Source of the DNA: an uncultured Bryobacteraceae bacterium
GTDB lineage: Bacteria; Acidobacteriota; Terriglobia; Bryobacterales; Bryobacteraceae
NCBI GenBank assembly: GCA_955652915.1
Contig: CATPCJ010000230.1
Span: 1-36,037 of the forward strand
Direction of reading: 5' to 3'
Length of the DNA: 36,037 nt
Part shown: piece after piece, positions 16,477 to 21,172 of the stretch
How the letters are laid out: every line of letters starts with the position of its first letter
Numbering within the stretch: the stretch's first letter is position 1
The notes under the pieces: model-generated
What the model was told of the DNA's origin: nothing
Database searches by the model: none
What the model saw: only the letters and a program-made list of their open reading frames with translations
Program-made: the position numbers and the translations under genes

Positions 16477-17853
16477 CTATGCGGGATTCCGTGAGCACAT
16501 AGCGGGCAGCAGCGTGGGATTTCCCCGTGAAACGTGATCTACTATCCGATCGCACCGATCCAACGGAATTACGGCGCTCGCCAGCGACGTGAATTTCGCG
16601 GTCAGCTCCGCCCAACTCAACGGGTTCTCGGGATCGCCTTTGGGATGCCGGATAAACTTCTCATACTGCCGTCCGTCATCCAGGAAAATAGTCGCTCGCG
16701 CGTTCCATTCCTTTGGAAAGTTTTTGTCGAGCCGCATGTCTTTCATCAACGTGACTTTTCCCATCAGATCGCGGACCCGCTTCGATTCTATGTTTTCCAT
16801 GGTGAATTCCTCTATCCCCGCTCGGCGGCGGATCAGTGCTACTGCTGCTCCGAACGGCATGGAAAACTGCGCGTCGACAACAGACTGTGGCTTGTACTTC
16901 TGTCCCCGCGGCTCCACCACCAGCCCCCAGCCGGCCTCCAGAACCGGCACCTCCATGTTCACCACCTGCTCGGGTTTGATGTCGTGCTTCTTCGCCAGAT
17001 CGAGGATCGCGTCGATGGGGCCTTGCATGTAGCGGCAGCAAGCGTGCGGCTTGACGCTGGTGTGCATGATCTCGTACGACTCGCCGAGGCCATCTGTAAC
17101 TTGCTCCGGGATCGGCCTCTTGGAATACCCAGCCAGGAACCCATCACGCCCTTCGAGAATCGTGCCGGGCCCCCGGAATCCGTCCGCCGCCAGCATCGCC
17201 GCCTGAATGCCGTTCTGCGCGGCAAGCCCGGGATGCAGCCGCTTGGTCCAGGCGCCGTCCTTTAGAAATTCAAGCGATCCGGCCGCCATGCTGCCCGCAA
17301 TCCCGACGGCTGAGAGCATCTGCTCCACGCTCAGGCCAAAAAGTCTTGACGCGGTAACCGCGGCGCCGAAAACGCCACAAGTCGCGGTTGGATGGAATCC
17401 CAACAGGTAGTGCTCTTTCGGTTGGACAGCCATCGCGATGCGCGCCGCAGCCTCATACCCGGCGATCACGGCGGCAAGAAAGTGGTCCGCGTCGATCTCC
17501 GGAAGGGTTTCAGCAAGAGCGAGCGCAGTGGAGAACATTACCACGCCCAGATGAATGGAGCCGGCGTTGTGCGTGTCATCCAGTTCGATGGCATGCGCGG
17601 CCGTGCCATTCGCGAGAGCCGCATAGCCGGCCGATGTGCAAATACCAGTACCGATGATGGTCGCCGATCCGCTGGCGCCGATGCGTTGGATCGTCTTGTA
17701 AACCGGCGCGGACGATTCGGCGAGCGATCCACGCGTGGCAACCCCGAGATAGTCGAGCAGAAAATAGCGCCCGCGGTCGAAGACCTGCGGCGGCAACTTC
17801 GTTGGGTCCAGCGCCGCTAAGAAGTCCACCAACTCTTTGGTGTACGCCCTCAT
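16477..17853 (-). CDS. MmgE/PrpD family protein (2-methylcitrate dehydratase / aconitate decarboxylase superfamily)
   Basis: This 458-residue protein is of normal family length. The N-terminal helical half contains AANGTAAHAIELDDTHNAG, the best-conserved family segment (usually ..HxLDxDD..), and the middle has GFHPTATCGVFGAA. The C-terminal half has HACCRYMQGPIDAILDL, matching the family's conserved HPCCRxxH-like motif. Family members dehydrate 2-methylcitrate or decarboxylate cis-aconitate to itaconate, but many have unknown substrates. It is the last gene of the acyl-CoA operon, overlapping a MaoC gene by four bases, so a dicarboxylate or tricarboxylate substrate fits best. The exact reaction cannot be assigned. 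Confidence 0.88.
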   Translation of the reverse strand: MRAYTKELVDFLAALDPTKLPPQVFDRGRYFLLDYLGVATRGSLAESSAPVYKTIQRIGASGSATIIGTGICTSAGYAALANGTAAHAIELDDTHNAGSIHLGVVMFSTALALAETLPEIDADHFLAAVIAGYEAAARIAMAVQPKEHYLLGFHPTATCGVFGAAVTASRLFGLSVEQMLSAVGIAGSMAAGSLEFLKDGAWTKRLHPGLAAQNGIQAAMLAADGFRGPGTILEGRDGFLAGYSKRPIPEQVTDGLGESYEIMHTSVKPHACCRYMQGPIDAILDLAKKHDIKPEQVVNMEVPVLEAGWGLVVEPRGQKYKPQSVVDAQFSMPFGAAVALIRRRAGIEEFTMENIESKRVRDLMGKVTLMKDMRLDKNFPKEWNARATIFLDDGRQYEKFIRHPKGDPENPLSWAELTAKFTSLASAVIPLDRCDRIVDHVSRGNPTLLPAMCSRNPA

Positions 17854-18305
17854 TCCGAGCTCTTCTTCGGCGCCAGGAAGCTCCGCCGCAACACCAGCAC
17901 TCGTTCGCGATTCTGGTTGTACGCGCGTGTTTCGATGGCCACCACGCCGCGGTCCGGCTTGCTGGCGGATTCGCGCTTTTCCAGCACCTCCGATTCGGCG
18001 TAAAGCGAATCGCCCGGAAAAAGCGGCCGCTCGAACACTACGCTTTCATAGCCGAGATTCGCGATTGTCTTTCCGCTGGTATCGGCCACGCTCATCCCCA
18101 CCGCCAGGCTGAAGACCAATGTGTCGATCGCCGGTCTGCGGCCCAGCGGCTGCTGCCGGGCATAATATTCATCGATGTACAGCGGATGCTGATTCATCGT
18201 GAGCAACGCGAACCAGGTGTTGTCATGCTCCGTGATAGTTCGCCCCGGCCAATGCGGATACACGGCGCCGGTTTCGAACTCTTCGTAATACCGCCCGAAG
18301 CTCAC
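17850..18305 (-). CDS. MaoC-like hotdog dehydratase, copy 1
   Basis: This 151-residue single hotdog domain starts with MSFGRYYEEFETGAVYPHWP. Residues 38-48 read NQHPLYIDEYY, aligning with the hydratase-2 signature D-x-N-P-L-H-x-D-x-x-Y. The catalytic Asp is Asn38 here, and the catalytic His is Tyr43. The closest known relatives by pattern are mesaconyl-CoA or itaconyl-CoA hydratases. It lies two bases after the dehydrogenase stop and overlaps the MmgE/PrpD start. With both catalytic positions substituted, it may be a structural partner of the second MaoC in this operon or use a different mechanism. Confidence 0.88.
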   Translation of the reverse strand: MSFGRYYEEFETGAVYPHWPGRTITEHDNTWFALLTMNQHPLYIDEYYARQQPLGRRPAIDTLVFSLAVGMSVADTSGKTIANLGYESVVFERPLFPGDSLYAESEVLEKRESASKPDRGVVAIETRAYNQNRERVLVLRRSFLAPKKSSE

Positions 18306-18307
18306 GC

Positions 18308-19468: not shown

Positions 19469-19923
19469 GGAGCTTCTCCCTCGGGCCGTTTTGGTATGAC
19501 AAGTTTTCTCTGCATCGAAAGAATTGCCTCGCCACGCTGGTTGAGCGCGGTCGTGGCGACGATCACGATTCCGCGGCCGTCAGGTAATTCTTGTTTCGAC
19601 ACAATGCTCGACTCGGCATAAACCGTGTCGCCGTGGAACACCGGCGCCAAGTGCCGGATCTCTGAATAATTCAGTGTTTCAAGCACGCGCCCGCCAACGT
19701 CCGCCTGGCTCAAACCGATCGCTAGACTAATAACCAGCGGACCCACCACCAGCCGGCGCGCGTGCTGCGTTTCGCCGGCGTAATGTTCGTCAATGTGTAC
19801 CGGATGTTGGTTCATGCTCATTAAGCTGAAGAGCGTATCGTCGAACTCGGTTATGGTTCTTCCCGGCCAGTGACGGAACTGCCGGCCAACTTCCAACTCG
19901 TCGAAGTAACGCCCATAGCCCAT
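19456..19923 (-). CDS. MaoC-like hotdog dehydratase, copy 2
   Basis: This 155-residue hotdog protein is clearly paralogous to the MaoC protein two genes downstream: both open GRY(Y/F), share HWPGRTITE, and carry NQHP at residues 38-41. Here residues 38-48 are NQHPVHIDEHY, so the position equivalent to the catalytic His is His43, whereas copy 1 has Tyr. The ATG at 19923 lies one base beyond the CoA-transferase stop. A longer frame to 20013 only repeats antisense of that gene. It is probably the catalytically competent hydratase acting on a CoA ester made by the transferase. Confidence 0.88.
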   Translation of the reverse strand: MGYGRYFDELEVGRQFRHWPGRTITEFDDTLFSLMSMNQHPVHIDEHYAGETQHARRLVVGPLVISLAIGLSQADVGGRVLETLNYSEIRHLAPVFHGDTVYAESSIVSKQELPDGRGIVIVATTALNQRGEAILSMQRKLVIPKRPEGEAPCAS

Positions 19924-19924
19924 G

Positions 19925-21172
19925 CTAAGAACCAAATGCGCAAGCCCCGCAACGGGCGAGCTCTTCGATTTCCGCCTCTGCAAATCCTGCTTCCAACAAG
20001 ATTGCCCTTCCATGCTCGCCTAGCGCCGGCGGCGGACCTGCAACGGCTGGCGGAGTGACGGAGAGTGAAATTGGGAGCCTGGGAACATCGGCCGGCGATT
20101 CGCCCGCCAGCGCCACCGCCACCAATTGATCCAGCGCGGCCATCTGCGGATCGTTCATCACTTGCTCCGCATTTTGCACGGCGTCGCACGGGACGTCATG
20201 CGCATTGAAAATCTTCAGCCACTCCGCGGTAGACTTTGCCCGCAGGATGTTTTCGATCCGGCCTTCCAGATCGGAACGGTTGCGCACGCGTTCGATATTC
20301 GTGAGAAACATCGGATCTTCGGTCCATTCCATGTGGCCCAGCGCGGAACACAGACGCCGAAAAAGACGATCGTTCGAAATACCGATCATCACCGCGCCGT
20401 CGGTGGTGGAAAATGCTCCATAGGGCGCCACGGAAGCGTGCCGCGATCCCTGCGGTCCGGGATTCACTCCTGAAAACTGGCGATACAGCAGGTGATAGCA
20501 CATCAACATTACGCCGGTTTGGAATAACGACGCTTCTACACGCTGGCCGCGTCCGGAAGCCTGCCGCTCGAACAATGCAGCCAGGATGCCGAGCGCCATC
20601 CAGACTCCGGCCCCCATGTCGAGAATGGAAACACCGGCCCGAATCGGCGTGTCGGCGTTCGGGCCGGTGACGCTTACGATACCGGTGCGGGCTTGCAGAA
20701 TTGCATCGTAGCCGGGCTTGCCGCAATCCGGCCCGCTGGATCCATAGGCCGATAGCGATGCGTAAATCACGTCGGGCTTGCGGGCGCGGATAGCCGCCTC
20801 GTCCAGTCCCAGCGCCGCCGCTTTCCCAACGCGAAAATTCTCGATGAAGACATCGCAACCTTGCGCGAGCCGCAGCACCGTTTCCCGGCCGGCCGGTTTC
20901 GTGACGTCGATAGTGATAGACCGCTTGCCGCGATTGATAGGCGTGAAGTAGGCGCCCCATTGCCCGCGATGAGGTCCCATATCCCGAGCGTCGTCGCCGC
21001 CGTCGATGCGTTCCACTTTGATGATCTCGGCGCCCAGGTCGGCCAGGATCATCGTGGCCGTGGGACCGGCGACGACCGTGCTCAAGTCCAGAACGCGTAC
21101 GCCTGTGAGTGGAGGAGGCAAGACGATGAAGATAGCATATCGCGATCCGGACACGGCCCTCCGTCGTACCAT
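19925..21172 (-). CDS. CoA transferase, family III (CaiB/BaiF)
   Basis: This protein of up to 415 residues has the family III fold. LTGVRVLDLSTVVAGP begins the first domain, NRGKRSITIDV and ENFRVG follow, and Asp185 in ILDMGAGVW is the nucleophile that forms the aspartyl-CoA intermediate. Such enzymes move CoA between carboxylic acids, for example succinyl-CoA to itaconate or mesaconate. The annotated ATG at 21172 lies within a tandem repeat and adds 17 atypical residues; a TTG at 21121 would give a start closer to the family norm. It is the first gene of the operon with MaoC, dehydrogenase, MaoC and MmgE/PrpD. Confidence 0.9.
   Translation of the reverse strand: MVRRRAVSGSRYAIFIVLPPPLTGVRVLDLSTVVAGPTATMILADLGAEIIKVERIDGGDDARDMGPHRGQWGAYFTPINRGKRSITIDVTKPAGRETVLRLAQGCDVFIENFRVGKAAALGLDEAAIRARKPDVIYASLSAYGSSGPDCGKPGYDAILQARTGIVSVTGPNADTPIRAGVSILDMGAGVWMALGILAALFERQASGRGQRVEASLFQTGVMLMCYHLLYRQFSGVNPGPQGSRHASVAPYGAFSTTDGAVMIGISNDRLFRRLCSALGHMEWTEDPMFLTNIERVRNRSDLEGRIENILRAKSTAEWLKIFNAHDVPCDAVQNAEQVMNDPQMAALDQLVAVALAGESPADVPRLPISLSVTPPAVAGPPPALGEHGRAILLEAGFAEAEIEELARCGACAFGS

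What the first reader, a model, noticed from the sequence alone, without database searches (positions are those of the whole stretch)
16477..21172. Five-gene acyl-CoA operon with a CoA transferase, two MaoC hydratases, a dehydrogenase and an MmgE/PrpD protein
Seen: five minus-strand genes with gaps or overlaps of -13 to +2 bases, in the order CaiB, MaoC, ACAD, MaoC, MmgE/PrpD. Known: CaiB-type transferases with MaoC hydratases act on C5 dicarboxylates (itaconate, mesaconate), and MmgE/PrpD proteins include 2-methylcitrate dehydratase and cis-aconitate decarboxylase. Inference: the operon activates, desaturates and hydrates a carboxylated short-chain acid. No CitE-like lyase is present, so it is not a plain itaconate route, and the complete pathway may be undescribed.
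Basis: partly seen in the sequence, partly recalled or inferred. Interest (0 to 1): 0.62.

Follow-up and report, generated by a model that had tools for sequence, protein, structure and literature searches.

The report
Acidobacterial operon for a methylsuccinate-like acid
Five linked acidobacterial genes look like an independently assembled version of the recently described methylsuccinate-degradation enzymes, but with no final carbon-cutting lyase and with a hydratase that seems to have split into one working and one non-working subunit.

Summary
The five-gene minus-strand operon is real (CaiB, MaoC, ACAD, MaoC, MmgE/PrpD; junctions +1, -13, +2, -4). The same enzyme kinds are already characterised in Pseudomonas aeruginosa and Cupriavidus necator: MmgE/PrpD is a methylsuccinate isomerase and the ACAD a methylsuccinyl-C4-CoA dehydrogenase, alongside itaconate CoA-transferase, hydratase and citramalyl-CoA lyase. 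So the pathway type is described.

The window operon is not an orthologue. Its CaiB, ACAD and MmgE/PrpD are 34-37% identical to the characterised proteins and fall in other clades. It is confined to one acidobacterial family (12 of 257 genomes of the order); in most of these it is only CaiB-ACAD-MmgE/PrpD. Nine of the 12 genomes, the window's included, have no detectable CitE-type lyase.

The two MaoC genes are present together (5 genomes) or absent together (7). MaoC1 has lost the hydratase histidine in all five but is under purifying selection, so the pair is most likely one heteromeric hydratase.

MmgE/PrpD keeps all seven Msi active-site residues, including the isomerase tyrosine. Best reading: a dicarboxylate-CoA oxidation module for methylsuccinate or a near relative. 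The substrate is inferred, not shown.

The parts
19925..21172 (-). CaiB-type (class III) CoA-transferase; catalytic Asp in RAGVSILDMGAG conserved; true start may be TTG 21121
   Evidence: Pfam PF02515 408 bits; 34% identical to P. aeruginosa Ict, 36% to the Variovorax one; Asp alignment; forms its own 9-member Bryobacteraceae clade, support 1.0
19456..19923 (-). MaoC2, single hot-dog hydratase, putative catalytic subunit (Asn and His kept: MNQHPVHID)
   Evidence: PF01575; motif alignment; scores best on the C-terminal half of Chloroflexus Mch/MeaC
18308..19468 (-). Acyl-CoA dehydrogenase; Glu in the isovaleryl-CoA-dehydrogenase position (LEAER), canonical EGT Glu replaced by GGT
   Evidence: Pfam; alignment; clade with the ACADs of CitE-linked acidobacterial clusters, support 0.98
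17850..18305 (-). MaoC1, hot-dog protein with the catalytic His replaced by Tyr (MNQHPLYID), putative non-catalytic partner of MaoC2
   Evidence: Alignment: Y/F in 5 of 5 Bryobacteraceae MaoC1, His in all 33 other aligned sequences; dN/dS about 0.05-0.09; model pLDDT 94, best TM-score to Mch/MeaC
16477..17853 (-). MmgE/PrpD family protein, putative 2-substituted-succinate (methylsuccinate-like) isomerase
   Evidence: PF03972/PF19305; residues equivalent to PA0881 H88, E91, H102, Y148, H152, K202, K266 all present; model pLDDT 92.5, nearest structure iminodisuccinate epimerase

Best explanation
The operon encodes a CoA-dependent oxidation module for a 2-substituted succinate, most economically methylsuccinate. 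MmgE/PrpD interconverts the two enantiomers of the free acid (inferred). CaiB transfers CoA from a donor such as succinyl-CoA to one enantiomer (inferred). The acyl-CoA dehydrogenase oxidises the beta-branched CoA ester to the unsaturated ester, mesaconyl-C4-CoA if the acid is methylsuccinate (inferred). MaoC2, assisted by the catalytically dead MaoC1 as a heteromeric hydratase, hydrates it to a 3-hydroxyacyl-CoA (inferred). In most relatives the module stops at the unsaturated ester because neither hydratase nor CitE lyase is found (shown by search). The carbon therefore leaves by a route other than CitE-type citramalyl-CoA cleavage, perhaps by CoA recycling through CaiB, as in the carnitine CaiA/CaiB pair. 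The module was assembled from other stock than the P. aeruginosa cluster (shown by trees) and works like it rather than descending from it.
For: Same enzyme kinds as the characterised methylsuccinate cluster (anchor L191). All seven Msi active-site residues including Tyr148 are present in the window protein and all ten relatives checked. Nearest solved fold is IDS epimerase, also the nearest fold reported for PA0881. The Glu of the ACAD sits where isovaleryl-CoA dehydrogenase has its base, a Glu shared with PA0879, and methylsuccinyl-C4-CoA is isovaleryl-CoA with one methyl oxidised (alignment; base position from general knowledge). The nearest ACAD and MaoC relatives lie in ACAD-MaoC-CitE clusters (L040, L116, L117). 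MaoC1 and MaoC2 are both present in 5 and both absent in 7 of 12 genomes, with L038 keeping MaoC2 elsewhere in its genome. MaoC1 dN/dS is about 0.05-0.09. PrpD, ACAD and CaiB distances correlate (r 0.68-0.79, 0 of 2000 permutations).
Against: CaiB, ACAD and PrpD are only 34-37% identical to the characterised enzymes and lie in other clades, so the substrate could differ. Six of the seven PrpD residues are family-wide and say only 1,4-dicarboxylate. No lyase: 9 of 12 operon-bearing genomes lack a CitE homologue, so a pathway to acetyl-CoA and pyruvate is not complete. No transporter or regulator is consistently linked. The mirror-tree correlation includes shared species history. Heteromer formation was not modelled.
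Confidence: 0.5

Rival explanations
1. A module for a different 2-substituted succinate or branched acid (for example an alkylsuccinate, tricarballylate-like or imino dicarboxylate), with the same isomerase, transferase and dehydrogenase logic.
For: Low identity to Msi/Ict/Mcd and separate clades; the published docking suggests that such active sites can take larger C3-substituted substrates (PMC12290011); absence of citramalyl-CoA lyase.
Against: No gene in or next to the operon points to another substrate; the ACAD's nearest relatives are CitE-linked as in C5 acid degradation.
Confidence: 0.35
2. Itaconate/methylsuccinate degradation proper, completed by an unlinked lyase outside the CitE family (for example an HMG-CoA-lyase-type enzyme).
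For: The operon chemistry would give citramalyl-CoA; a Diaphorobacter plasmid cluster joins MmgE/PrpD, ACAD, two MaoC-type proteins, a CoA-transferase and an annotated HMG-CoA lyase.
Against: No lyase found in the 12 operon loci; the genera that lack MaoC cannot make citramalyl-CoA by this route; the Diaphorobacter MmgE/PrpD lacks the tyrosine.
Confidence: 0.2
3. The module runs in reverse as a reductive CoA-transferase/dehydrogenase pair (like CaiB/CaiA), reducing an unsaturated dicarboxylate.
For: Best NCBIfam match of the ACAD is acryloyl-CoA reductase AcrC, 364 bits, below its cut-off of 640; core reduced to CaiB-ACAD-PrpD in most relatives.
Against: No dedicated ETF in the operon; the proteobacterial ACAD in L103 gives the same AcrC match, so it does not discriminate.
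Confidence: 0.12
4. MmgE/PrpD is a 2-methylcitrate dehydratase or cis-aconitate decarboxylase and the operon is a propionate or itaconate-forming pathway.
For: Family name; cis-aconitate decarboxylases are also close in fold (TM-score 0.86-0.90).
Against: 40.9 bits against a cut-off of 950 for NCBIfam PrpD; methylcitrate dehydratases rank well below in fold search; isomerase Tyr present; no prpB or prpC in the operon.
Confidence: 0.08

Closest known systems
P. aeruginosa PA0878-PA0883 / C. necator E6A55_22580-22600 itaconate-methylsuccinate cluster (ich, mcd, msi, ict, ccl)
   Same: CoA-transferase III, acyl-CoA dehydrogenase, MaoC-fold hydratase and MmgE/PrpD isomerase in one operon; all seven Msi active-site residues; Glu at the same non-canonical ACAD position
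   Different: 34-37% identity, different clades for CaiB, ACAD and PrpD; Ich is a 275-aa protein there, two short hot-dog proteins here; no ccl and no VOC lactonase here
Acidobacterial ACAD-MaoC-CitE clusters (L040, L116, L117)
   Same: ACAD 69-70% and MaoC 62-66% identical to the window proteins
   Different: They have a CitE-family lyase (Ccl/RipC-like in L040) and an active-site-complete MaoC; no linked CaiB or MmgE/PrpD
Proteobacterial MmgE/PrpD-MaoC-ACAD-CaiB sets (L095, L102, L079, L071, Bordetella L103)
   Same: Same four families, tightly packed in L095/L102; ACAD 52-57%, MaoC 51-54% identical
   Different: CaiB and PrpD 29-43% identical; single active-site-complete MaoC; canonical ACAD base EGT in L095 and L103; L071 has a CitE inside
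Mesaconyl-CoA hydratase Mch/MeaC (4e3e, 8hgn) and heteromeric MaoC hydratases HadAB, HadBC, ChsH1-ChsH2
   Same: Pairing of a degenerate and a catalytic hot-dog; MaoC1 resembles the Mch N-half, MaoC2 the C-half
   Different: Two separate genes here, derived from RipB-like single-domain stock; complex formation here not shown

Membership tests
P. aeruginosa-type methylsuccinate/itaconate cluster | Orthologous Ict, Mcd and Msi (tree placement) | tested here: not met
   34-37% identity and separate clades for all three
P. aeruginosa-type methylsuccinate/itaconate cluster | (S)-citramalyl-CoA lyase Ccl in the cluster | tested here: not met
   No CitE in the operon; no match to a Ccl-type query in the genome
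P. aeruginosa-type methylsuccinate/itaconate cluster | MmgE/PrpD next to a methylsuccinyl-CoA-dehydrogenase-like ACAD | tested here: met
   ACAD and PrpD in the same operon in all but two of the 12 genomes, though the ACAD is of another clade
(S)-(R)-methylsuccinate isomerase (Msi) | Active-site residues H88, E91, H102, Y148, H152, K202, K266 | tested here: met
   All seven in the window and ten relatives
(S)-(R)-methylsuccinate isomerase (Msi) | Published Msi HMM score at or above 550 | not testable with these tools
   The HMM is not held; identity 37% to PA0881 makes a pass unlikely
(S)-(R)-methylsuccinate isomerase (Msi) | Isomerase activity on methylsuccinate | not testable with these tools
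   Needs purified protein
2-methylcitrate dehydratase PrpD | NCBIfam PrpD equivalog cut-off | tested here: not met
   40.9 bits against 950
RipB/Ich itaconyl-CoA hydratase (NF038241) | Equivalog cut-off 340 bits | tested here: not met
   137 (MaoC1) and 112 (MaoC2) bits
MaoC hydratase with active site | Catalytic Asn/Asp and His | tested here: inconclusive
   Met in MaoC2, not in MaoC1
CaiB class III CoA-transferase | Pfam cut-off and catalytic Asp | tested here: met
   408 bits against 23.3; Asp conserved

The most novel reading that the evidence does not exclude
A separate, family-specific dicarboxylate module (CaiB-ACAD-MmgE/PrpD) that works without hydratase or lyase in most relatives, ending in an unsaturated dicarboxylate, and that in some genomes carries a hydratase which became a heteromer of a living and a dead subunit; its substrate and end product are unlike the known methylsuccinate route.
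Probability: 0.4. Interest if true: 0.6.

Novelty: new variant of a known kind. Interest (0 to 1): 0.42.

Why it matters
Most MmgE/PrpD proteins have no known function, and methylsuccinate breakdown was explained only in 2023-2025 and almost entirely in Pseudomonadota. An acidobacterial version built from other relatives suggests that this chemistry arose more than once, and the missing lyase poses a concrete question about where the carbon goes. The MaoC1/MaoC2 pair is a testable case of a homomeric hydratase turning into a catalytic/non-catalytic heteromer, with the lyase-linked, single-MaoC relatives available for comparison.

Tried and rejected
Bordetella/Paraburkholderia clusters (L103, L080, L091, L106) were first taken as anchors for the characterised isomerase; rejected because the gene after CaiB in L103 and L080 is a GntR regulator, not a lyase, and their MmgE/PrpD lacks the tyrosine. 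For the same reason the whole-genome lyase search, made with that L103 gene, is void; it was repeated with a real CitE-family query. The true anchor was then found on a P. aeruginosa megaplasmid (L191), whose residue numbering matches the paper. The MFS gene at 12638-14023 as dedicated transporter: rejected, 32% to the MFS beside the L177 operon and not otherwise linked. HpaI-type aldolases in the genome (L124, L126) as the missing lyase: rejected, they match the HpaI/GarL aldolase models. The weak HpcH/HpaI hits on C136, C227 and at the edge of C277 did not match the Ccl-type query and were not pursued. ParA-like genes behind the L179 operon, an esterase before L038 and a PilZ gene before L175 are not shared. 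Promoter and terminator scan upstream gave nothing on the operon strand. A paper search for the four family names together found none.
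Full report
Observation. The five genes are present, on the minus strand, in the stated order, with junctions of +1, -13, +2 and -4 bases. The window is contig 230 of a 7.09-Mb, 91.6% complete genome. The closest named relatives are Bryobacterales MAGs. The N-terminus of CaiB is uncertain because the ATG lies in a perfect 17-bp tandem repeat.

Conservation. Two further genomes (L036, L037) have the identical five-gene order. L038 has CaiB-ACAD-MaoC1-PrpD and keeps MaoC2 on another contig at 70% identity. 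L039 has MaoC2-MaoC1-PrpD. L175, L177, L178, L179 and L180 have CaiB-ACAD-PrpD only; L176, cut by its contig end, shows ACAD-PrpD; L181 has PrpD without the two partners beside it. PrpD orthologues occur in 12 of 257 genomes of the order, all in one family and three genera. The stable core is therefore CaiB-ACAD-MmgE/PrpD, and the hydratases are an optional addition.

What is known. The P. aeruginosa and C. necator itaconate clusters hold the same enzyme kinds. Genetics (PMC9875883) and purified enzymes (PMC12290011) show that the MmgE/PrpD protein is a methylsuccinate isomerase acting on the free acid, and that the ACAD is an (RS)-methylsuccinyl-C4-CoA dehydrogenase giving mesaconyl-C4-CoA. 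The transferase prefers (R)-methylsuccinate; hydratase and lyase finish the job. The authors place 96% of such isomerases in Pseudomonadota. I obtained sequences for the PA0878-PA0883 region from a P. aeruginosa megaplasmid record that carries it (L191); the residue numbers in the paper match exactly.

Works like, but not a member. Against these anchors the window proteins are 37% (PrpD), 34% (ACAD) and 34% (CaiB) identical and fall in other clades. The characterised hydratase is a 275-aa protein; the window has two 151-155-aa hot-dog proteins related to RipB/Ich, well below that family's cut-off. So membership fails on orthology and on the lyase, while the mechanism resembles.

MmgE/PrpD. All seven active-site residues of the isomerase are kept in the window protein and ten relatives. 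Tyr148 is the discriminating one: it is absent from the Bordetella-type and Diaphorobacter proteins. The AlphaFold model (pLDDT 92.5) is closest to iminodisuccinate epimerase, with cis-aconitate decarboxylases near and methylcitrate dehydratases further off. An isomerase or epimerase of a 1,4-dicarboxylate is the best reading; the substrate is not shown.

ACAD. The canonical Glu of the EGT motif is replaced by Gly, and a Glu stands instead in LEAER. PA0879 also has Glu there, while the proteobacterial relatives in L095 and L103 keep EGT. From general knowledge this second position is the catalytic base of isovaleryl-CoA dehydrogenase, and methylsuccinyl-C4-CoA is the carboxylated analogue of isovaleryl-CoA. 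This supports a beta-branched substrate; it is inference.

The MaoC pair. The hydratase histidine is Tyr or Phe in all five Bryobacteraceae MaoC1 proteins and His in the other 33 aligned sequences, MaoC2 included. MaoC1 is nevertheless conserved (76-86% identity to the window; dN/dS about 0.05-0.09) and folds confidently as a hot-dog with the best TM-score to Mch/MeaC. By sequence MaoC1 is nearest the N-half of that fused enzyme and MaoC2 scores best on the C-half, the half with the VHFD histidine. Both genes occur together in five genomes and neither in seven, although these genomes are related and the effective number of events is small. A heteromeric hydratase, as in HadAB or ChsH1-ChsH2, is the simplest account; complex formation was not tested.

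The missing lyase. A CitE-family lyase query (from L116) finds nothing in the window genome and nothing in nine of the twelve operon-bearing genomes, one of them 100% complete; the other three have only a 36-38% homologue. The nearest ACAD and MaoC relatives in other Acidobacteria sit beside a CitE-family lyase (L040, L116, L117). A plausible history, not proven, is an ACAD-MaoC-CitE ancestor that gained CaiB and MmgE/PrpD, lost the lyase, and then in some lineages lost the hydratase.

Verdict. A known class of pathway in outline, with two unusual features (no lyase, split hydratase) and an unproven substrate. Interest is moderate.

Noticed in passing
window 21158-21207: Perfect 17-bp tandem repeat (2.9 copies) at the annotated start of CaiB; copies carry an ATG and a GGAGG stretch, so the start codon is ambiguous.
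   Followed up: partly
window 21265-21828 (+): Divergent gene with a CNDCH haem-binding motif and signal-like N-terminus, probably a c-type cytochrome; no Pfam or NCBIfam match.
   Followed up: no
window 14172-16433 (-): Ser/Thr kinase with TPR repeats directly downstream of the operon on the same strand; not conserved beside the operon in relatives.
   Followed up: partly
L095, L102, L071, L079, L103, L080, L106, L091: Recurrent MmgE/PrpD-MaoC-ACAD-CaiB sets in Alpha- and Betaproteobacteria, in clades apart from the characterised methylsuccinate cluster; L071 also has a CitE gene inside.
   Followed up: partly
L194 (Diaphorobacter plasmid): Cluster with MmgE/PrpD, a TPP enzyme, annotated HMG-CoA lyase, ACAD, two MaoC-type proteins and a fused double CoA-transferase; its MmgE/PrpD has Asn in place of the isomerase Tyr.
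   Followed up: partly
L191: A P. aeruginosa megaplasmid record carries the whole PA0878-PA0886-like region with neighbouring phhR and acs.
   Followed up: no
L052, L070, L074, L078, L084, L109: Widespread MaoC-ACAD-CaiB-CaiB clusters with two different CoA-transferases, without MmgE/PrpD found beside them.
   Followed up: no
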